Assembly (NCBI RefSeq): GCF_026914265.1
Contig: NC_069129.1
Coordinates: 17,097,945 to 17,161,944, forward strand
Reading direction: 5' to 3'
DNA: 64,000 nucleotides
Source of the DNA: Mya arenaria
Taxonomy: Eukaryota > Mollusca > Bivalvia > Myida > Myidae
Both the position numbers and the translations under genes were made by a program. Below the pieces are notes generated by a model that was not told the DNA's origin, searched no databases, and saw nothing but the letters and a program-made list of their open reading frames with translations. This document shows positions 10,546 to 55,415 of this stretch, one piece after another (positions within the stretch are counted from its first letter, which is position 1; every line of letters starts with the position of its first letter).

Positions 10546-10901
10546 AGCTGCACTCTCACACATAATAATAGCGTTTTTACAACTTTTTAATTCTTTGTCT
10601 TGGAAAGAGCAAATTTTTGCGTAAGTATCTGCAAATATATGATATAAGATTGCTGACAAAAGATCAGATCATAGAACTTCATATTTCTATTTGAAAATCC
10701 ATGTTTTATGGCTTAAATGGTTACTAACGGTTTAAGAAAAATGCATAAAACATCAATTTTTGAAATAAATATAAAAATCTGAGATCATTTTTTTTTGTCA
10801 GCAGTCTTATAAACTAGTTACAGTGCATTTTTGCAAAAATTGGCTCGATTCAAGAAAAAAATAAAAAGTTGTCAAAACGTTGGATCTGTGAGAGTGCAGT
10901 T
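10546..10901 (+). mobile_element. MITE, AGCTGCACTCTCAC family, copy 1
   Basis: The terminal inverted repeats begin AGCTGCACTCTCAC and are flanked by TTAA on both sides (10542-10545 and 10902-10905). The interior is AT-rich, non-coding and partly self-complementary. Related copies lie at 17543-18286, 31422-31769 and 60462-60797. TTAA targets are typical of piggyBac and Kolobok transposons. The superfamily is otherwise undetermined. Confidence 0.8.
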
Positions 10902-10964
10902 TTAATTTTAGTTTAAACATATTTATTTTACAACGATTGTGAAACAAGTTATTACAACATTATA

Positions 10965-11165
10965 TTAATCACTCTCGTTGGCACGATTTTACGCGAGAGT
11001 GTGGTCTTGTGTTGTGGGGGAAACCGGAGAACCCGGAGAAAACCCACTTGTCCGGCTTGGTGACCACAAACCAAACTCACATGCGCCCAAGCCGGGAATC
11101 GAACCCGGGTCGCCTAGGTGAGAAGCGAGTGCGCTAACCACTGCGCTAACCGGACAACCAACCCA
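10965..11165 (-). mobile_element. tRNA-derived SINE (type II)
   Basis: On the minus strand the tRNA-like head (gtccggttagcgcagtggtta A-box region, gggttcgattccc B-box) at about 11085-11160 runs into a body with ctccgggttctccggtttcc and a tail ending near gttggcacgatttt. The copy looks close to full length. Pieces of the same family lie at 37840-37890 (head), 40787-40860 (body) and 52507-52605 (body). Confidence 0.8.
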
Positions 11166-12385
11166 GTTTTAATTTTATGATATGACAATAAATTTCTTCT
11201 ATTACTGCTTTTAGCGCAGATCTAGATGATGTCTTGAAAAAACATTATTTACAATACTTATTAATTTGATTTTCCATATGAGTATTCCATGTATTCATGA
11301 GCATTTTATGATGTTGACTTACCGTATTGAAGTTGATTCATCTTCATGATTATCAGATATCCAATCAAAATTATACACAATAAACAATATAACTGATACT
11401 TGTTTTTATACTTCTATTAAATGTTGAAAGAGATACTGATATAAAGATATTGCTTGTAATTGATTTTCATTTAATACTCTAATATGTTTGAAATTTAATT
11501 CAGTGTTTAACCTTACAGTATTTTTTAAATCCTATAAAATTACAGTTTAAGGACAAAAAGCAGTAAAATAAAAGTAAACATCAAATGCTGAATACAGAAT
11601 ATTTCACCAATAAAATCATAAACAAAGCAACAGTAGGTCATAACATGGACATGTATAAAGAACGAATCTCCACCAACACAAAATTTGACATACAACATAC
11701 AGATTTAATGTCCTTAAACTTTGATTTTATTTTAGTTCTTCTGAATGACAGTGACAACATTCATAATCAAAGCGCTGCAAGACTGTCGGTGGCGTAACTG
11801 AAGCAAGCAAACACTACCGCAAAGTTCTTTCAAATGAAACGTGATCAAATGATTTCATACAAATGATGAACACTCTTTAAGGTAGATGAAGAAGGATAAA
11901 TGTGATTATAATAAGCACAAATATATTGGCCCTACTTAATCATGTATCAAATGGCCTACAAGATTCTTAAATAATTCAAATTTCCTAATTTTGAAACGCT
12001 TTAAATTAGTTAAATGCATATTCATTATGTTAAAATTGCTTCAATTTATGACGTCTCACTCTGCATGGTGCTGTGGCATCATACCATGAAAAAAACTAAT
12101 ATCTTTAAAATTTGTTTTCTAGTTTGTTTTTATTATAAAAGTGTTAATAAATCTGCATGGTGCTGAAGAAAAAAAACTAATGTCTTAAATTTCAAACCTG
12201 CAGCATTAATTAGCGCCATGTTGTCAAGAATATCTGGACAATTGAATGAAATATGCATGGACCAGTTTTAAGATTATGCTATTCAAAGTATGAGGGTAGT
12301 TGGTACAGTTTTCACTCATATTCAGATGATGGCTGATATTTGTTGATAAACATGTATCCTCTTAGCAGCAGGGAATAAGTAAATG
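11166..12385. other. gene-free AT-rich stretch
   Basis: No gene or repeat relation was found. The 70-codon open frame at 11585 has no recognisable domain. Confidence 0.5.
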
Positions 12386-13020: not shown

Positions 13021-13042
13021 ATTGAAATTGATTGAATATTTT

Positions 13043-14256
13043 TAGCTCCACTGGCCGAAGGCCATGGAGCTTATGTCGTCACAGATTGTCCGTCGTGAGT
13101 GCGTGCGTGCGTGCGTAAACTTTTACTTTAAACGACATCTCCTCTGAAACTGATAAGCGGATTTTGACAAAACTTCACAGGAATGTTCCTTTGGTGGTCC
13201 TTTACCAAAATTGCTCAAATGGTTCCGGTCCATTGCACAATATGGCCGCCAGAGCTAAAAATAGCAAAATCTTTAAACGACATCTCCTCTGAAACGGTTC
13301 GGCAGATTTTGATGAAACTTGACAGTAATGTTCCTTGGGTGGTCCTTTATTAAAATTGCTCAAATGGTTCTGGTCCATTGCACAATATGGCCGCCACAGC
13401 TAAAAATAGCAAAATCTTTAAACGACATCTCCTCTGAAACGGATAGGCAGATTTTGATGAAACTTGACAGAATTGTTCCTTGGGTGGTCCTTAACCAAAA
13501 TTGCTCAAATGGTTCCGGTCCGCTGCACAACATGGCTGCCAGGGCAAAAAAATAGAAAAACCTTTAAAGAACATCTTCTCAGAAACCGATGATCAGATTT
13601 TGATGAAACTTAACAGAAATGTTCCTTGGATGGTCCTTTATCAAATTTGCTTCAATGGTTTCGGTCCACTGCACAAGATGGCCCCGAAAGGTAAAAATAG
13701 AAAAACCTTTAAACGACTTCTCCTCAGAAACCGATGATCGTATTGCAATGAAACTTGACAGAAATGTTACTTGGGTAGTCCTTAACCAAAATAGCCCAAA
13801 CAGTTCTGGTCTGCTGCACAACATGGGCACCAGAGCTAAGAATAGAAAAAAAACGTTAAACTACATCTTCTCAGAAACCGATTATCAGATTTTGATGAAA
13901 CTTTACATAAATGTTCATCGGGATGCCCTTTAACCAAAATTGCCCAAATGGTTCCGGTCCGCTGCACAACATGGCTGCGAGAGTTAAAAATAGAAAAACC
14001 TTTAAGGACTTCTCGTCCGCAGTCTTCACGAAAAACATTTTAACCTACTAGCCAGTTGGACTAGCATAATGGCATATTTTACTAGTCCGAATGACAATCT
14101 AGTAGTCCGACTATTTTGCCACATTATAAAACTGTTTGCTTGAGGTAAATACCTATTTCAATTGAGCAGCTTGCAGTTTGAGTAAACATTTCTTTATTAT
14201 GATGCTCATGCAGTGATAGGGAGTGACATCCTTCTGTTGGGAATAGTGCTCCTTGT
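13043..14256 (+). repeat. 1.2-kb repeat unit, tandem copy 1
   Basis: The unit opens with tagctccactggccgaaggc and a short tgcg microsatellite. It then holds about six subrepeats of 141-148 bp (each with a cgacatctcctctgaaac-type and a gttccttgggtggtcctt-type segment) and closes with a unique tail ending gaatagtgctccttgtt. The subrepeats create several open frames that are artefacts of repeat structure and not genes. Confidence 0.85.
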
Positions 14257-15476
14257 TAGCTCCACTGGCCGAAGGCCATGGAGCTTATGTCGTCACAGAT
14301 TGTCCGTCGTGAGTGCGTGCGTGCGTGCGTGCGTGCGTAAACTTTTACTTTAAACGACATCTCCTCTGAAACTGATAAGCGGATTTTGACAAAACTTCAC
14401 AGGAATGTTCCTTGGGTGGTCCTTTACCAAAATTGCTCAAATGGTTCCGGTCCATTGCACAATATGGCCGCCAGAGCTAAAAATAGCAAAATCTTTAAAC
14501 GACATCTCCTCTGAAACGGTTCGGCAGATTTTGATGAAACTTGACAGTAATGTTCCTTGGGTATTCCTTTATTAAAATTGCTCAAATGGTTCTGGTCCAT
14601 TGCACAATATGGCTGCCACAGCTAAAAATAGCAAAATCTTTAAACGACATCTCCTCTGAAACGGATAGGCAGATTTTGATGAAACTTGACAGAATTGTTC
14701 CTTGGGTGGTCCTTAACCAAAATTGCTCAAATGGTTCCGGTCCGCTGCACAACATGGCTGCCAGGGCAAAAAAATAGAAAAACCTTTAAAGAACATCTTC
14801 TCAGAAACCGATGGTCAGATTTTGATGAAACTTAACAGAAATGTTCCTTGGATGGTCCTTTATCAAATTTGCTTCAATGGTTTCGGTCCACTGCACAAGA
14901 TGGCCCCCAGAGGTAAAAATAGAAAAACCTTTAAACGACTTCTCCTCAGAAACCGATGATCGTATTGCAATGAAACTTGACAGAAATGTTACTTGGGTAG
15001 TCCTTAACCAAAATAGCCCAAACAGTTCTGGTCTGCTGCACAACATGGGCACCAGAGCTAAGAATAGAAAAAAACGTTAAACTACATCTTCTCAGAAACC
15101 GATTATCAGATTTTGATGAAACTACATAAATGTTCATCGGGATGCCCTTTAACCAAAATTGCCCAAATGGTTCCGGTCCGCTGCACAACATGGCTGCGAG
15201 ATTTAAAAATAGAAAAACCTTTAAGGACTTCTCGTCCGCAGTCTTCACGAAAAACATTTTAACCTACTAGCCAGTTGGACTAGCATAATGGCATATTTTA
15301 CTAGTCCGAATGACAATCTAGTAGTCCGACTATTTTGCCACATTATAAAACTGTATGCTTGAGGTAAATACCTATTTCAATTGAGCAGCTTGCAGTTTGA
15401 GTAAACATTTCTTTATTATGATGCTCATGCAGTGATAGGGAGTGACATCCTTCTGTTGGGAATAGTGCTCCTTGTT
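14257..15476 (+). repeat. 1.2-kb repeat unit, tandem copy 2
   Basis: This is a head-to-tail, nearly identical copy of 13043-14256, offset by 1214 bp. It differs by a few substitutions and by length change in the tgcg run. The exact abutment of the two copies with high identity indicates a recent tandem duplication and not two separate insertions. Confidence 0.85.
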
Positions 15477-18289: not shown

Positions 18290-18837
18290 AACATATGATA
18301 TGCATTATCAGCCAAGTGCAGACCTACTCACATCCTGGCTACACAACCAGTACATTCATCAGCTTTACTGATTCGAACCAGGCACATTTATATTGGTAGA
18401 CTAGCATTTTACCATTCTGTGCTGGCCAGTAAAGTTCTCATTTGAATTAGAATTCAAAATGTATATACCTTTGTTCATTTTTTTTGCCAACTCTGTTTCA
18501 ACTGAACTTCCTAAATGAATGAGAAGTTTCAAAAAATAATTACAATATCTCAGTAAATACCTGCATTTATGTGTTTCTTGTGCAATCTGTCAGCTTTGGT
18601 AGGCTCAGGTTTCATTTTGTCCACCTCAATTCTTGTAATCTTCTAGTCTGATGTACTGCCATCCAATTTTTAAGTCAGGTCAGGCAGTCATTTCAGCTTT
18701 GTTCCAGTTGATTGTATCAGATGATGTTAACAATACTAGCCTTGTATCCAGGCACTTCTCAATCTGAAAGTTTACAAAAGAACATGGCCTGTAATATTTA
18801 ATAAATCATAATTGTTTACTCATGGATGATGGGTTCT
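18290..18837. other. gene-free stretch
   Basis: Nothing recognised besides AT-rich sequence. Confidence 0.45.
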
Positions 18838-18971
18838 AAAGTAAACCTTTGAGAAAATATGCTACTGGTATGGTGCTTGAACCCACGACCATGTGAACAC
18901 TTGCATGGAGATCTGTCAAACTGAGCTAACTGGGTAACTGATTTTTAGGCAGCTCCCAGCTTGGCTCTACA
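18838..18971 (-). mobile_element. solo LTR of the tRNA-bearing miniature element, old
   Basis: On the minus strand it runs from tgtagag to ggtttacttt, the same kind of ends as the LTRs at 20846-21159. In between is a diverged tRNA-like unit with cagttagctcagt (A-box) and cgtgggttcaag (B-box). Only one LTR is present and no clear target duplication is seen, so it is an old solo copy. Confidence 0.65.
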
Positions 18972-20620: not shown

Positions 20621-20872
20621 TACCTTCGTGTCCGAAATCGATCACTTCCTGGGAGCTCATTTCTGGATTGTCTCCATCTAAATTTAACATTTTTAGACGC
20701 ATACATTGATTGCCATTTTTGCTTCGATTGATGTTAAAGCAATAGCACTAAATACAGGTGGGTTATTTTGTAGAAAAACGTGTTCGAGGTAACATTCAAT
20801 TTCATTTCCGCATAATCGCTGCCATATTGTGTATGACTTAAAAACTGTAGTGTGTGTGGGTAAGAACCAGCC

Positions 20873-20946
20873 GCCCGGTTAGCTCAGTTGGTTAGAGCGC
20901 CATGCTAGTGTTCCGGTGGTCGTGGGTTCGAGCCCCACATCTGGCG
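20873..20946 (+). tRNA. tRNA-Thr-like unit inside the left LTR
   Basis: A 74-nt unit has an A-box (tagctcagttgg), a B-box (ggttcgagccc), a paired T arm and an AGT triplet in the anticodon position. A TTTT run follows at 20950, as after a normal pol III tRNA gene. The cloverleaf is imperfect, so a working tRNA is doubtful. The unit belongs to the LTR of the miniature element. The pol III promoter is the part most likely to matter. Confidence 0.5.
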
Positions 20947-21061
20947 CACTTTTCCTCCCAGGTTTACTTTACTGGTGGCAGCGGTAAACGGCGGTAGTGC
21001 CTCCGTCGGCCTAAAAGGTTAATGGGGGGAGGAGTGTAGTGTGTGTGGGTAAGAACCAGCC

Positions 21062-21135
21062 GCCCGGTTAGCTTAGTTGGTTAGAGCGCCATGCTAGTGT
21101 TCCGGCGGTCGTGGGTTCGAGCCCCACACCGGGCG
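21062..21135 (+). tRNA. tRNA-Thr-like unit inside the right LTR
   Basis: This is the counterpart of 20873-20946. Its 7-bp acceptor (GCCCGGT / ACCGGGC) and its T stem both pair perfectly. The A- and B-boxes are intact apart from one change in the A-box, and TTTT follows at 21139. The anticodon stem pairs poorly. It is better folded than the left copy, but it is still part of an LTR and should not be counted as a host tRNA gene without expression data. Confidence 0.5.
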
Positions 21136-21164
21136 CACTTTTCCTCCCAGGTTTACTTTAAAAC

Positions 21165-23917: not shown

Positions 23918-24204
23918 TGTACTGTGGATTGTATTTGGGGAAGCAGCAGCTTGGTTAGCTAAGTTAATAAGAATTCCATGATAACTTTTGAGTGTTTTTG
24001 GGCTAGAGTCCAACACCAGATGCACTGTCCCTCCAAGGTTTACTTTGATGTTAAATGCAAGGGTGACTTGATAAGTCTTTATATAAAAGGGAGAGGGGTG
24101 AAGTCTGTGGGTAATCCCATACAAACATGGGGCATCGGTTAGTGTTTTAGTGATCATAGGTTCGAGCCCATCATTGGGCCCACTTTTCCTGACAGATTTA
24201 CTGT
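23918..24204 (+). mobile_element. old copy of the tRNA-bearing miniature LTR element
   Basis: A left repeat at 23918-24046 (tgtactgtgg to ggtttacttt) and a right repeat at 24099-24204 (tgaagtctgtggg to gatttact) flank about 52 bp. That interior ends in a purine tract (aaaagggagagggg). Both repeats keep the order tRNA-like unit, cacttttcct-type segment, tttact end. It is much more diverged than 20846-21159, so the family has been active over a long time. Confidence 0.65.
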
Positions 24205-24489
24205 TAACTGTTATTGTGGAGGTCATTCTTTTATAAAATACAAGTAATTATCAAATCACTCACCTTTATCACTCAAATTTTATCTTCCTAAGTAGAGTGC
24301 AACACAGCATTCCATTAAAAATGCTGACTTAAAACAGCCAAATGTAAAGCAATATTATGGAATGCTGGTTGTTCCAATTTCCTTGAGTCAAAAAATCTCC
24401 AATGTTTATATAAACCTGTCCATGTCCTCGCAAGATATTACGTTTAATTGACACTGCAATTATTGTTTGGTAAATCAATCTGTTTCAAC

Positions 24490-25709
24490 CACTGGCATCT
24501 GGATCATTGTTTGTTACTTAAATGTTGTTTAAAACCATTTTGGGTACATACAATGAGATAAACAACACATCTGAAGATATTTAGTGTCTTTGATATACAA
24601 AAAAGAAACAAGGTATGTAACTCAAACTTACCCGATTTCACGGTAGAGTCCAGTTTTATGCAAATTTCTCAACCAACATATAAACAATCCATTTTTAAGT
24701 AAGTGACATGGAAAGAAGAGTCAATTACCTTTAAAATGGTGTGCGATATGTTGGTATAACTATATTGTCTTTAGACAAACAAGCATAATTCAATGTCCAA
24801 TTCTCGTGTTTTTCTTTAGTCGGAAAGAGTACAGCAAATTCAAATCGTCAATTTTCCCCGTGTAAACAGTACTAATGACAGTCCTATTGAAGTTATTTTA
24901 TGCTTCAGTGTACAGATAAATTAATTCCATTCCTTAATATCATCATAAGACTAACACCACAGTTTAAGAAACAACCGTATCAGTCTTCAAATTAAATCCA
25001 CTTTAAAATTTTGTTTGAGGCGGACATTTTCCTGACAGCGCTCAGATGTTTCTGATCAACCTCCAAAGAAGAGTATTTGACCCATCCAAGCTTGTGTAGC
25101 TCACATTCAAGCTGGTACAAAGATGTTAAATGTACATGTCAATGACATCATCTGGGCGCTTGTCGGTAAAATGGCAGGCTGCCTACGAAATTTAAAGTGG
25201 ATTTAATTTGAAGACTGATACGGTTGTTGTTTAAACTGTGGTGTTAGTCTTATGGTGATATTAAGGAATGGAATTAATTTATCTGTACACTGAAGCATAA
25301 AATAACTTCAATAGGACTGTCATTAGTACTGTTTACACGGGGAAAATTGACGATTTGAATTTGCTGTACTCTTTCCGACTAAAGAAAAACACGAGAATTG
25401 GACATTGAATTATGCTTGTTTGTCTCAAGACATAATAGATATACCAACATATCGCACACCATTTTAAAGGTAATTGACTCTTCTTTCCATGTCACTTATT
25501 TAAAAATGGATTGTTTATATGTTGGTTGAGAAATTTGCATAAAACTGGACTCTACCGTGAAATCGGGTTAAGTTTGAGTTACATACCTTGTTTCTTTTTT
25601 GTATATCAAAGACACTAAATATCTTCAGATGTGTTGTTTATCTGATTGTATGTACCCAAAATGGTTTTAAACAACATTTAAGTGACAAATAATGATACAG
25701 ATGCCTGTG
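24490..25709. mobile_element. foldback DNA transposon, 1220 bp, 8-bp target duplication
   Basis: Two arms of about 520 bp (24490-25010 and 25187-25709) are near-perfect reverse complements around a 176-bp centre. The ends read CAC(T/A)GGCATCTG. The 8-bp gtttcaac lies at 24482-24489 and again at 25710-25717, a perfect target duplication. Nothing in it codes for a transposase. 8-bp duplications are made by hAT- and P-type transposases, so it is probably a non-autonomous member of one of these. A deleted sister lies at 36516-37095. Confidence 0.92.
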
Positions 25710-25717
25710 GTTTCAAC

Positions 25718-51400: not shown

Positions 51401-54400
51401 ATTTTGAACAATAAGTTTCTTATATATGAATTTCCTTTCGTTTTCAGACCCTATGGTCAATTGTGATGCTGGTGTCCGGTGCCTTGTTTACGATGATGGA
51501 GTTGGTCAGTCTGTTCTCAATCATTCTCAGCTTTTCTGTTGTTGTTACGCAGCTTTACCTTAGATGGAAGCAACCGCATGCTGAAAGGCCTTACAAAGTA
51601 AGACTTGTATTAACAAAGCAGTATTTTGTCTATAAAAAAACACACTATTTTAAGATTTATCCTTCGGAAGCATAAATAGCTACCAGAGCTCCGGTTTGAT
51701 TGTGTCTGTGCAATGCAATATAGTATGTGCAAGATTGTCATTTGCTGGTCTAGTTTATTTAACCAAATCATGAGGTACAATCTGAAAATTATGTATATGT
51801 AAGGCTGACATATGCAATTTCATTGCCATAAACATTTTAGAATGAGGTTAACTTGTATCCTCGACTAACCATGATGCGTGGATGTAAGGAATAAATTAAC
51901 AATAATAAAGTTGAACAAAACATTACTTTTATCCGACATGCCATGTATTCATCCTTTTTACTTATATAACAAGTATGTAAGCACAACAGGCCAAAATTTC
52001 ACATAAATATTGCGAACAGAGAACAGCAGCTTCTGAAACTAGGCCACCATCTTGACTGTAGTACCTAGATTCTCGAACTCTGACATAATCTAGGTCAACA
52101 CATTTTAACTAGGTCAATGCTGTTTTAATCAATTGGTTTTGGTGAAAAATAGTCAAGCTTATCTTCAAAAATGTTCATTTCAAAATTTCAACTTAAAATT
52201 GACAAAATAATGCAAATTATGTAAACATAAACATTATATTAGTCAAATTTCTCCTCATTTTTTTCTAGAACGCAGGTTTTTAATGTCTTTGTCTTATGGC
52301 CACATTTTTGTGTCATTACCCTTACAGAAATTGATCCGAATAATAGCACTCTGCTTAGTCCTTTTTCTAGTCGTTTTATTTCCATTTGAAAATGGATTTT
52401 TGTAAAATAATGTATTTCTGCCTTCGGTATAATTCTGATTTTCTAGTGTTTTGTTTAAACTTTATTTATTTTAAAATGTTTGTGAAAAAAATGAATTAAT
52501 TTATGCGAAGTTATTCTCGTTGGCACGATTTTGCGTGAGAAAGTGGTCTTGTGTTGTGGGAGAAACCGGAAAACCCGGAGAAAACCTACTTATCCGGCTG
52601 GGCATCCAGATTGTTCAGATCATAAGAACACATTTCAACTAGAACAAATAATCAGACGAACAATTTTGTAACTTGTCCTATATGAACAACCTTTATTTGG
52701 GCGATCTGACCAAAAAGTACGATGTACGACCACGATCATTTTGAAATACGGTAAAGACATTGGTCCAAAATAAATTCAACCACTATGTGAACTTTCACGG
52801 GTTTTTTTCAGTGAGTTGAGTTCTTTCCTTTACTTGAAAAGATTCAGAGCATACTCTTTCTTTGTTTGTGTCCAAACTATGATTTGTTAAAAACTGTAGA
52901 ATGTGTTTGTAATTAATGCTGGGACAAGTGTGAGGTTATTTGCATATAAACTAATTCAACCCCTAGTGGACGCGTGTTTTACTGACCGTTCCAAGGCGGT
53001 AATCCCATTTTGATGCGTGTGAGGACCACAGTGGCTTGATGATAGCAGCTAAACTGAGATATGTGTTATGGTATGTAAAAATCAAATTTGGGTTGGATGG
53101 ACTGTTTTTTTTTGTTTAATGAGTTTTAAATAGCTCCTATCATTAAGCTACTGTGGTGTGGTCTGCTTGTGATGTTTGGGCGCTTGTGCCTCTCGTTCAG
53201 TGCCGTTTGGGCTTTCATTTGATATTTCACTAGACTTGTCCCTTAGTTTTCATTGTATTATTGATGAACCTTCTACAAACTACGTTTAATTAATGTGCAT
53301 GACAAACTGTTTTGATATTATATTTTTTTATTGCAGACATTTCTTTTCATTCCAATTTCCCAATTCGCATTGATCATCGTCGTGTTTTTCTTGTGTATCT
53401 ACCAAGAACCTTTAAAACTTGGCCGTGGCCTGGCCATCTTAGCGGCTGGTCTTCCTGCATATTGGTTTGGTGTTTTATGGAGGAAAAAGCCAAAAGTTTA
53501 TCACAGATTCATGAGTAAGTACCTATTTATTGTTTTTATTTTATTTGTAGTTCAATTTTGCTTCGCGGTCTGGTCCGCCGATCACTGCATATAGGCTTTG
53601 TCTTTGTGATCACAGCGTCAAGGCTTAGGCTTGGTGATCACTGCTTCTAGGCTTGGTCTGGATGAAAACTGCTTCGAGGCTTGGTCAGGATGATCACTGC
53701 TTCTAAGCTGGGTCTGGATGATCACTGTTCCTAGGCTGGGTCCGGGTTATCACTGCTTCTAGGCTTGGTCAGGATTATCACTGCTTCTAAGCTGGGTCAG
53801 GATAGTCACTGTTTCTAGGCTGGGTCATGATGATCACTGTTTCTAGGCTGGGTCAGGATGATCACTGTTTCTAGGCTGGGTCAGGATGGTCACTGCTTTT
53901 AGGCGGTCTGGATGATCGCTGCTTCTATGCTTGGTCAGGATGATCACTGTTTCTATGCTTGGTCTGAATGATCACTGCTTCTAAGCTGGGTCAGGATGAT
54001 CACTGTTTCTATGCTTGGTCTGGGTGATCACTGTTTCTAGGATGGGTCCGGATGATCACTGCTTCAAGGCTTGGTCAGGATTGTCACTGTTTCTAGGCTT
54101 GGTCTGGATGATCATTGCTTCTACGCTGGGTCAGGATGATTACTGTTTCTAGGCTGGGTCCGGATGATCACTGCTTCTAAGCTGGGTCTAGGTGATCACT
54201 GTTTTTATGCTTGGTAAGGTTGATCACTGTTCCCATGCTTGATCTAGGCTTCTGTTGTATAAACATATTGTTCATTCCAACGTAATTTGGTTGGCATATG
54301 ACTCTGACTTGTGTAGGTAAGTTATATCAAACTGTTTTGGTGAGTTGTTAAATGTTTAAAAAATAACTTTAAAACATGACTTCTTTTTTTCAGAGTATAT

Positions 54401-54446
54401 AACTGTAGGATTACAAAAGCTGCTTTCTGTTGGAAAGGCGGCATGA
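48418..54446 (+). CDS. SLC7 (LAT/b0,+AT) light-chain amino-acid transporter-like, ten exons, 478 aa
   Basis: The exons are 48418-48877, 49069-49194, 49434-49533, 49645-49689, 49937-50060, 50367-50470, 50595-50691, 51448-51597, 53337-53514 and 54394-54446. All junctions are GT/AG and in phase. The 478-aa product matches the family length. It has a cytosolic N terminus and about 12 membrane segments, with ELGTMFPKSGGAYAY and FSVFTYGGW (family TM6 region) followed by EEVKNPGRDLPKAV. Cys138, in the TM3-TM4 loop before KPP, is placed where light chains form the disulfide with an SLC3 heavy chain. The family exchanges amino acids across the plasma membrane as such heterodimers. One oddity is that the TM1 backbone-binding motif, usually GSGIF, reads GHVSVF. 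Substrate choice may therefore differ, and the substrate is not predictable from sequence. Confidence 0.92.
50080..50202 (+). repeat. 61-bp tandem duplication in SLC7-like intron 5
   Basis: Two adjacent nearly identical units (atagtattcat, atctgaaaagtcatgacaac, attacattgttagaccag) are present. It is a recent local duplication within the intron. Confidence 0.8.
50925..51325. repeat. 27-bp minisatellite in SLC7-like intron 7
   Basis: About 14 drifting copies of a unit like ttagtaaacatcacataactaaata are present. Because 27 is a multiple of 3, the array yields a repetitive minus-strand frame (9-residue period), which is not a gene. Confidence 0.8.
51650..53336 (+). other. SLC7-like intron 8 sequence with a SINE piece
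   Basis: This part of intron 8 has no gene. 52507-52605 is a minus-strand type II SINE body (ttggcacgattttgcg, gaaacc-gga-aacccggagaaaacc). Confidence 0.6.
53600..54245 (+). repeat. 28-bp minisatellite in SLC7-like intron 9
   Basis: About 22 copies of a unit like tcaggatgatcactgtttctaggctggg are present, each with a tgatca palindrome. Copies vary at a few fixed positions (ctggat/caggat, gcttct/gtttct), so higher-order turnover is likely. The array fills most of the intron. Confidence 0.85.
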
Positions 54447-54699
54447 TGTATCTCCAGTTCCAACATCAACATATATGGTTGTAGTTCCGACCCTATGAAA
54501 TGAAGTCCGTTATGCTGAACTGTTCACAGTGTGTTTATTGTAACATATCTGAATGTATGACCATTCTTGGAAATCATTCTTATTTTTAAGATAGTTTTAG
54601 AACAGTAAGCGTATTTATTTTTCTATCTATTTTGCTTTTTAATATCCTACACTGTTATATGTATTTTACAACTGATGCTGAATGTGTTTTTCTAGCGGC
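54447..54699 (+). other. start of the SLC7-like 3' UTR
   Basis: This is non-coding sequence after the TGA. No convincing aataaa signal is seen before the tandem array that follows. Confidence 0.4.
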
Positions 54700-55415
54700 T
54701 TCATGTTGATTTTGTATCTGATGTAATTTACTTCCTAAGTCTTACATGTGACCCTTATACATTTTGTATCTGATTTTGTATCTGATATAATTTACTTCCT
54801 AAGTCTTACATGTGACCCTTATACATTTTGTATCTGATGTAATTTACTTCCGAAGTATTACATGTGACCCTTATACATTTTGTATCTGATTTTGTATCTG
54901 ATGTAATTTACTTCCTAAGTATTACATGTGACCCTTATACATTTTGTATCTGATTTTGTATCTGATGTAATTTACTTCCGAAGTATTACATGTGACCCTT
55001 ATACATTTTGTATCTGATTTTGTATCTGATGTAATTTACTTCCGAAGTATTACATGTGACCCTTATACATTTTGTATCTGATTTTGTATCTGGTGTAATT
55101 TACTTCCGAAGTATTACATGTGACCCTTATACATTTTGTATCTGATTTTGTATCTGATGTAATTTACTTCCGAAGTATTACATGTGACCCTTATACATTT
55201 TGTATCTGATTTTGTATCTGATGTAATTTACTTCCGAAGTATTACATGTGACCCTTATACATTTTGTATCTGATTTTGTATCTGATGTAATTTACTTCCG
55301 AAGTATTACATGTGACCCTTATACATTTTGTATCTGATTTTGTATCTGATGTAATTTACTTCCTAAGTATTACATGTGACCCTTATACATTTTGTATCTG
55401 ATTTTGTATCTGACG
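54700..55415 (+). repeat. 64-bp tandem array in the SLC7-like 3' flank
   Basis: About 11 copies of a 64-bp unit are present (landmarks tgatgtaatttacttcc, tattacatgtgaccc, ttatacattttgtatctg). Most units are identical or differ at one base (cctaag/cgaag), and one unit is shorter. It starts about 250 bp after the stop codon, so it may be transcribed in the 3' UTR. Confidence 0.9.

What the first reader, a model, noticed from the sequence alone, without database searches (positions are those of the whole stretch)
20846..21159. Miniature LTR element that carries a tRNA gene-like unit in each LTR
Seen directly: equal 125-bp direct repeats, a 5-bp target duplication (aaaac), a tRNA-Leu type primer site 2 nt inside the left repeat, a purine tract against the right repeat, and in each repeat a 74-nt tRNA-like unit with A-box, B-box and a TTTT run after it. 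Known precedent: plant Cassandra elements carry 5S rRNA genes in LTRs. I do not recall an animal element with a tRNA gene in its LTR. Inference: pol III promoters in the LTR could give a second transcription route, or protect the element by making it look like a tRNA locus.
Basis: partly seen in the sequence, partly recalled or inferred. Interest (0 to 1): 0.85.

Follow-up and report, generated by a model that had tools for sequence, protein, structure and literature searches.

The report
Clam mini-retrotransposon with tRNA-like promoters
A 315-base piece of a clam genome is a tiny copy-and-paste element whose two end repeats each hold a tRNA-like promoter; this kind of element was described in 2024, so it is a new member of a known kind, with a few copies that seem to carry a stretch of the tRNA that starts their copying.

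Summary
The element spans 20846-21160: two 126-bp LTRs (122 of 126 identical), a 63-bp interior with a 13-nt tRNA-Leu primer site and an 11-nt purine tract, and a tRNA-like unit with A box, B box and TTTT in each LTR. The target duplication is 4 bp (aaac), not 5: exact in 28 of 32 distinct complete copies. This is a new member of Helenus, probably outside the bivalve subclass reported there, with a tRNA-Leu primer site not listed there for bivalves. New here: five distinct copies whose left LTR runs into 17, 17, 18, 18 or 27 nt of tRNA-Leu sequence, although the family's own site matches 13 nt; this looks like tRNA copied during reverse transcription. Pol III transcription remains inferred.

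The parts
20842..20845 (.). left 4-bp target site duplication, aaac
20846..20971 (+). 5' LTR, 126 bp, TG...TA
   Evidence: LTR boundary set by other copies
20873..20946 (+). tRNA-like unit of the 5' LTR (tRNA-Thr AGT call; 1 acceptor-stem and 2 anticodon-stem mismatches)
20879..20891 (+). A box, 5' LTR
   Evidence: position; motif as described in PMC10886601
20924..20935 (+). B box, 5' LTR
   Evidence: position; motif as in PMC10886601
20950..20953 (+). TTTT, candidate pol III terminator in the 5' LTR
20972..21034 (+). internal region, 63 bp, too short to code for anything useful
20973..20985 (+). primer binding site, 13 nt complementary to mature tRNA-Leu 3' end (CCA included), 1 nt inside the 5' LTR
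21024..21034 (+). polypurine tract GGGGGGAGGAG abutting the 3' LTR
21035..21160 (+). 3' LTR, 126 bp
21062..21135 (+). tRNA-like unit of the 3' LTR (full acceptor stem, 2 anticodon-stem mismatches)
21068..21080 (+). A box, 3' LTR
   Evidence: position
21113..21124 (+). B box, 3' LTR
   Evidence: position
21139..21142 (+). TTTT, candidate pol III terminator in the 3' LTR
21161..21164 (.). right 4-bp target site duplication, aaac
18837..18947 (-). decayed related LTR (76% over LTR positions 16-126)
23940..24202 (+). decayed related copy: LTR-like stretch 23940-24046 (70%) and a second 24140-24202 (78%) in the same orientation; outer limits uncertain

Best explanation
It is a Helenus-type TRIM: a non-autonomous LTR retrotransposon of a bivalve (the assembly fits Mya arenaria) whose LTRs contain a tRNA-derived pol III promoter. 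Most likely cycle: (1) inferred: pol III binds the A and B boxes of the 5' LTR, starts just upstream of the tRNA-like unit, reads past the weak four-T stop in the 5' LTR in some rounds and ends at the same four-T stop in the 3' LTR, so that the tRNA-like unit becomes the repeated (R) region of a template of roughly 280 nt; (2) supported: mature tRNA-Leu primes at the 13-nt site 1 nt inside the 5' LTR; (3) inferred from anatomy: the purine tract primes the second strand; (4) supported: an integrase that makes 4-bp duplications inserts the product; (5) inferred: the enzymes come in trans from a Ty3/Gypsy element. Copies are then reduced to solo LTRs or multiplied into LTR-interior-LTR-interior-LTR arrays. 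It is not a tRNA gene and probably encodes no working tRNA.
For: Structure. Exact 4-bp duplications in 28 of 32 distinct complete copies against a mean of 1.15 and a maximum of 6 in 1000 shuffles of the right flanks (2 repeat rows dropped). Dispersed over many chromosomes. LTR ends outnumber LTR-primer junctions 1011 to 168, as solo LTRs would give. In 9 of 32 copies with two or more complete LTRs the first and last are identical (repeat rows not removed, not the same set of 32 as), so some insertions are recent. The primer is named by this genome: tRNA-Leu(TAG) gene L096 holds the exact 23-nt 3' end. Copies whose left LTR runs into 17, 17, 18, 18 and 27 nt of tRNA-Leu sequence (L065, L067, L068, L070, L069), against AAACG after the 13-nt core in 41 of 51 junctions. 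Helenus description and 4-bp rule: PMC10886601. T-run of exactly 4 in 90 of 95 LTRs.
Against: No RNA data, so pol III use and the template ends are unproven. Within this young family the A and B boxes are not clearly better conserved than the rest of the LTR (mean divergence 0.019 and 0.037 against 0.021-0.044 elsewhere), which neither supports nor excludes function. Absence of other T4 runs is not significant (43% of shuffles lack them too). 4 of 32 complete copies lack an exact duplication. The Gypsy partner is not identified.
Confidence: 0.9

Rival explanations
1. Same TRIM, but the template RNA is made by pol II (from the LTR's own start or from neighbouring promoters), and the tRNA-like unit is a passenger left by a SINE or tRNA insertion into an ancestral LTR.
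For: No box-specific conservation inside the family. The four-T stop in the 5' LTR could end many pol III transcripts before the primer site. The tRNA-like unit has two anticodon-stem mismatches.
Against: A box, B box and a four-T stop (kept in 90 of 95 LTRs) take up most of a 126-bp LTR; an element of 315 bp fits pol III; PMC10886601 reports box conservation across families (text seen).
Confidence: 0.3
2. Tandem duplication of a tRNA gene or a tRNA array, not a retroelement.
For: Seven of 28 copies with exact duplications are LTR-interior arrays of 3 or 4 LTRs, which look like tRNA arrays.
Against: Dispersed insertions with 4-bp duplications, primer site and purine tract; those seven arrays too are bounded by such duplications.
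Confidence: 0.02
3. The element is mobilised by Steamer, the Mya arenaria retrotransposon amplified in its transmissible cancer.
For: Same species by inference; Steamer is an active LTR element of this clam (PMC10663159, passages; its Ty3/Gypsy class and tRNA-Leu primer are recalled, not from a call).
Against: Steamer makes 5-bp duplications (PMC10663159, passages); this family makes 4-bp ones.
Confidence: 0.05
4. The copies with long tRNA-Leu matches are relics of an older subfamily with a full 18-nt primer site, not tRNA copied during reverse transcription.
For: The genome holds 374 exact 17-nt matches to a full tRNA-Leu site, at least some of them in other LTR elements.
Against: One copy (L070, with its duplicate L071) has the long version directly after the 5' LTR and the ordinary 13-nt version with the ordinary interior further in; L069 matches the tRNA for 27 nt, longer than a usual primer site; the lengths 17-18 coincide with the known stop before the modified A58 of tRNA (recalled); the sequences that follow differ between the five distinct loci.
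Confidence: 0.2

Closest known systems
Helenus (TRIMp3), Kojima 2024, PMC10886601
   Same: TRIM, tRNA-derived sequence with A and B boxes in the LTRs, primer site and purine tract, 4-bp duplications in animals, tandem arrays reported for one family, Thr-like unit in some bivalve families, LTRs outnumbering interiors.
   Different: Reported bivalve families are from Pteriomorphia with Lys, His, Ile, Pro, Glu or Ser primer sites; this one is in a genome that fits a clam of Imparidentia and uses tRNA-Leu. Sequence homology to the published families untested.
Cassandra (plant TRIM with 5S rRNA gene in LTR), PMC7215508 passages
   Same: Small-RNA gene with pol III promoter in the LTRs of a TRIM; tandem LTR-interior arrays.
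   Different: 5S rRNA instead of tRNA; plants.
Ajax (nemertean TRIM with part of 5S rRNA), PMC10886601
   Same: TRIMp3 with a tRNA-Leu primer site.
   Different: 5S-derived promoter, 5-bp duplications.
biv-TRIM of bivalves, PMC6934838 passages
   Same: Bivalve TRIM.
   Different: No canonical primer site found there; no tRNA-like unit in its terminal repeats mentioned in the passages seen. Sequences not compared.
tRNA-derived SINEs (recalled)
   Same: tRNA-derived pol III promoter in a short non-autonomous element.
   Different: SINEs have no LTRs, primer site, purine tract or integrase-type short duplications.

Membership tests
Helenus | TRIM: two LTRs, short (311-1263 bp in the paper), no mobility proteins | tested here: met
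   315 bp, LTRs 126 bp, 63-bp interior
Helenus | tRNA-derived sequence in the LTRs with A and B boxes | tested here: met
   Rfam tRNA 43.0 and 48.5 bits; TAGCT...TTGG and GGTTC present
Helenus | primer binding site at the 5' end of the interior | tested here: met
   13 nt complementary to tRNA-Leu of the same genome
Helenus | polypurine tract against the 3' LTR | tested here: met
   GGGGGGAGGAG
Helenus | 4-bp target duplications in animals | tested here: met
   28 of 32 distinct complete copies
Helenus | Gypsy-class partner | tested here: inconclusive
   An RT-bearing LTR element with a full tRNA-Leu site exists; 4-bp duplication read in one copy only, LTR start unconfirmed; no other shared sequence shown
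Helenus | sequence relation to a published Helenus family | not testable with these tools
   consensus sequences are in a supplement; no supplement look-ups allowed
Helenus / TRIMp3 | transcription by RNA polymerase III | not testable with these tools
   no RNA or ChIP data here; not shown for Helenus in PMC10886601 either
Cassandra | 5S rRNA sequence in the LTRs | tested here: not met
   Rfam at gathering cut-offs finds tRNA only
Steamer-mobilised element | 5-bp target duplication | tested here: not met
   4 bp against 5 bp in PMC10663159
cellular tRNA-Thr gene | intact cloverleaf | tested here: not met
   two mismatches in the anticodon stem of both window units, one more in the acceptor stem of the left one

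The most novel reading that the evidence does not exclude
The tRNA-like unit is the R region of a pol III-made genome: a weak four-T stop lets pol III pass the first LTR and stop in the second, giving both a short tRNA-like RNA and a full template. Reverse transcription copies tRNA-Leu up to its modified A58, but the element's own site matches only 13 nt, so the plus strand often ends mismatched and jumps to foreign templates, leaving the LTR-plus-tRNA junctions joined to unrelated DNA that are seen in the genome.
Probability: 0.3. Interest if true: 0.55.

Novelty: new member of a known kind. Interest (0 to 1): 0.3.

Why it matters
It probably extends Helenus beyond the bivalve subclass in which it was reported, in a genome with recent insertions and a clear primer, so the untested claim that tRNA-like units drive these elements could be tested in an animal. 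The copies that carry tRNA-Leu sequence point to an intermediate of reverse transcription. Such elements also inflate tRNA gene counts in annotation.

Tried and rejected
Tandem tRNA array: rejected by 4-bp duplications around single and arrayed copies. Five-bp duplication: rejected. Steamer as helper: disfavoured by duplication length. Box conservation as evidence for function: computed on 95 complete LTR rows, 68 of them distinct; no clear signal, as expected if copies of a young family drift neutrally. Lack of other T-runs as evidence: not significant. Helper search: a 16-nt LTR-to-primer pattern ending one base past the 13-nt core gave 11 places, 6 with this family's LTR and 5 without; the bare 17-nt site gave 374 places, 100 of them listed, of which 5 were read for this purpose, two with long open frames after the site. 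Pfam gave nothing for one of those frames and only two matches below cut-off for the other; a piece further in of one element has an RT and RNase H match. Its 4-bp duplication (gtat) rests on one copy whose LTR start was not confirmed by a second. For L065 and L067 a second LTR was sought about 1.5 kb plus 3 kb downstream and none found; L068 and L069 were searched only about 1.5 kb downstream. Four further candidate tRNA-copy loci could not be read. The tRNA-like hit at 11083-11155 has no direct repeats of 20 nt or more within 10700-11500. Steamer-like elements of Mytilus chilensis (PMC11046912, passages) were looked at for primer type only; one has a tRNA-Asn site.

Full report
What was checked. 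Two direct repeats lie at 20846-20971 and 21035-21160, 122 of 126 nt identical. Rfam and ARAGORN each find a tRNA-like unit in both. The interior is 63 bp: one C, then 13 nt complementary to the 3' end of a CCA-bearing tRNA-Leu, and at its end the purine tract GGGGGGAGGAG. TTTT begins after a gap of 3 nt behind the tRNA-like unit in both LTRs, and the 315-bp element has no other run of four T, which by itself is not unusual (43% of shuffles also have none).

Source. The window is part of a 1,216,080,610-base assembly in 18 contigs, the last a 17,947-base contig with mitochondrial-type frames (by eye, no domain search). This fits the Mya arenaria reference, 1.22 Gb in 17 scaffolds (PMC10663159, passages). 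The species is an inference from size and contig number; no sequence match to a named record was made. Mya belongs to Myida, Imparidentia, not to Pteriomorphia.

Copies. At up to 3 mismatches the genome holds 597 LTR heads (pattern with the end of the purine tract in front), 168 LTR-to-primer-site junctions and 1011 LTR ends; backward-read control patterns give 0 in each case. The excess of LTR ends over junctions suggests many solo LTRs (inference; hardly any were read). I merged all fetched loci into 62 regions and took complete copies with at least two LTRs and an interior: 34 rows, 2 dropped as duplicates by flank, 32 left. In 28 of 32 the four bases before the first LTR equal the four bases after the last; 2 have three of four and 2 have two of four. 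Shuffling right flanks 1000 times gave a mean of 1.15 and a maximum of 6. The sample is biased to well-preserved copies, since it came from best matches and low-mismatch listings. The 5-bp reading needs an A at the fifth base and holds in 16 of 28. Of the 28, 21 have two LTRs, 5 have three and 2 have four. In 9 of 32 copies with two or more complete LTRs the first and last complete LTR are identical, the rest differ at 1 to 12 of 126 (repeat rows not removed, a slightly different set); the window copy differs at 4 of 126.

The tRNA-like unit. ARAGORN calls tRNA-Thr(AGT) in both. The T and D stems pair; the acceptor stem pairs fully in the 3' LTR and has one mismatch in the 5' LTR; the anticodon stem has two mismatches in both. 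In the family one of these two positions usually holds a pairing base. A working tRNA is unlikely from these copies. In 95 complete LTR rows (68 distinct) the T-run is 4 in 90, 3 in 3, 2 in 1 and 5 in 1. A and B boxes are not clearly more conserved than other LTR parts within the family (0.019 and 0.037 against 0.021-0.044); this tests drift after insertion, not function.

Primer and tRNA copies. The 23-nt tRNA-Leu 3' end has 34 exact matches in the genome, of which one is locus L069 itself; L096 is a tRNA-Leu gene with that end. A 16-nt pattern that runs one base past the 13-nt match found 11 places: 6 have this family's LTR in front (L065, L067, L068, L069, L070, L071; L070 and L071 share flanks) and 5 do not. 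In all 6 the next bases go on matching tRNA-Leu, for 17 nt (L065, L067), 18 nt (L068, L070/L071) or 27 nt (L069) in all. In the fetched regions, 51 junctions caught by a regular expression read AAACG after the 13-nt core in 41, GGGAT or GGGAC in 5, and close variants of AAACG in 5; L069 was missed by that expression and duplicates were not removed. L070 is a full copy with a 4-bp duplication, with the long tRNA match directly after the 5' LTR, then about 140 nt of other sequence, then the ordinary 13-nt site and interior. L065, L067, L068 and L069 show no second LTR within the stretch read and no obvious duplication (by eye). Reading: during plus-strand synthesis the enzyme copied the attached tRNA, usually to just before the modified A58 (stop position recalled), and the end, mismatched to the element's own site beyond 13 nt, was extended on or joined to other DNA. 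Relics of a subfamily with a full site are not excluded.

Helper. Steamer makes 5-bp duplications (PMC10663159, passages), so it is a poor fit. The genome has 374 exact 17-nt tRNA-Leu primer sites. Of five read, L098 and L099 have long open frames after the site. The L099 family has LTRs that are nearly identical between copies; in most pairs on one contig they lie 8.4-8.7 kb apart, in one pair 5.7 kb. One copy has an RT and RNase H match (RVT_1 E 1.3e-10, RT_RNaseH_2 E 4.4e-8) and gtat on both sides, a 4-bp duplication, with the LTR start not independently confirmed. That it is Ty3/Gypsy is my reading of the domain order and sequence, not a tree. It is a candidate helper only.

What is known. 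Kojima 2024 (PMC10886601; main text read in parts 1-5 of 6; supplements not seen) defines Helenus as TRIMs with tRNA-derived sequence in the LTRs, in fungi, six animal phyla and Selaginella, with 4-bp duplications in animals, and reports 51 bivalve families, from five orders of Pteriomorphia; seven bivalve families could encode tRNA-Thr. It lists Lys, His, Ile, Pro, Glu and Ser primer sites for bivalves. Whether heterodont genomes were searched there is not said in the text seen. The present family meets the Helenus features that could be tested. Searches for 'Helenus' with TRIM and retrotransposon from 2023 on (this paper alone) and for 'TRIMp3' (4 papers, this one relevant) found no other report; two wider searches showed none among the listed papers (30 of 52 listed, 10 of 85 listed). 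So no report from this clam was found in that open-access library; Repbase was not searched. Cassandra tandem arrays and read-through of LTRs are described in PMC7215508 (passages).

Verdict. A real element of a known kind, with recent insertions. New are the host range (if the species is right), the tRNA-Leu site in a bivalve, and the junctions that look like copied tRNA. Pol III transcription is the likeliest route (my estimate about 0.65) but is not shown.

Noticed in passing
window 11083-11155 (-): A weaker tRNA-like sequence (Rfam 34.4 bits; ARAGORN without clear isotype), no direct repeats around it; perhaps a SINE head.
   Followed up: partly
window 18837-18947 (-) and 23940-24202 (+): Two decayed relatives of the same LTR family within about 3 kb of the element.
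   Followed up: partly
G000:C1 24,303,966-24,403,838: 57 exact tRNA-Leu primer-site matches in 100 kb, all on one strand, 0.3-4.5 kb apart: perhaps an array of LTR elements or their pieces.
   Followed up: no
window 24487-25712; 53580-55413; 13039-15476: A large inverted self-match (92%), a dense tandem repeat block, and a 1.2-kb direct repeat with inner periodicity (self-BLAST).
   Followed up: no
L065 after the LTR: The tRNA-Leu copy is followed by sequence with an inverted repeat of about 20 nt and a cysteine-rich, PHD-like reading frame (by eye, no domain search).
   Followed up: no
L068 and L070: The foreign sequence next to the tRNA copy is related in the two loci but in opposite orientation (by eye).
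   Followed up: no
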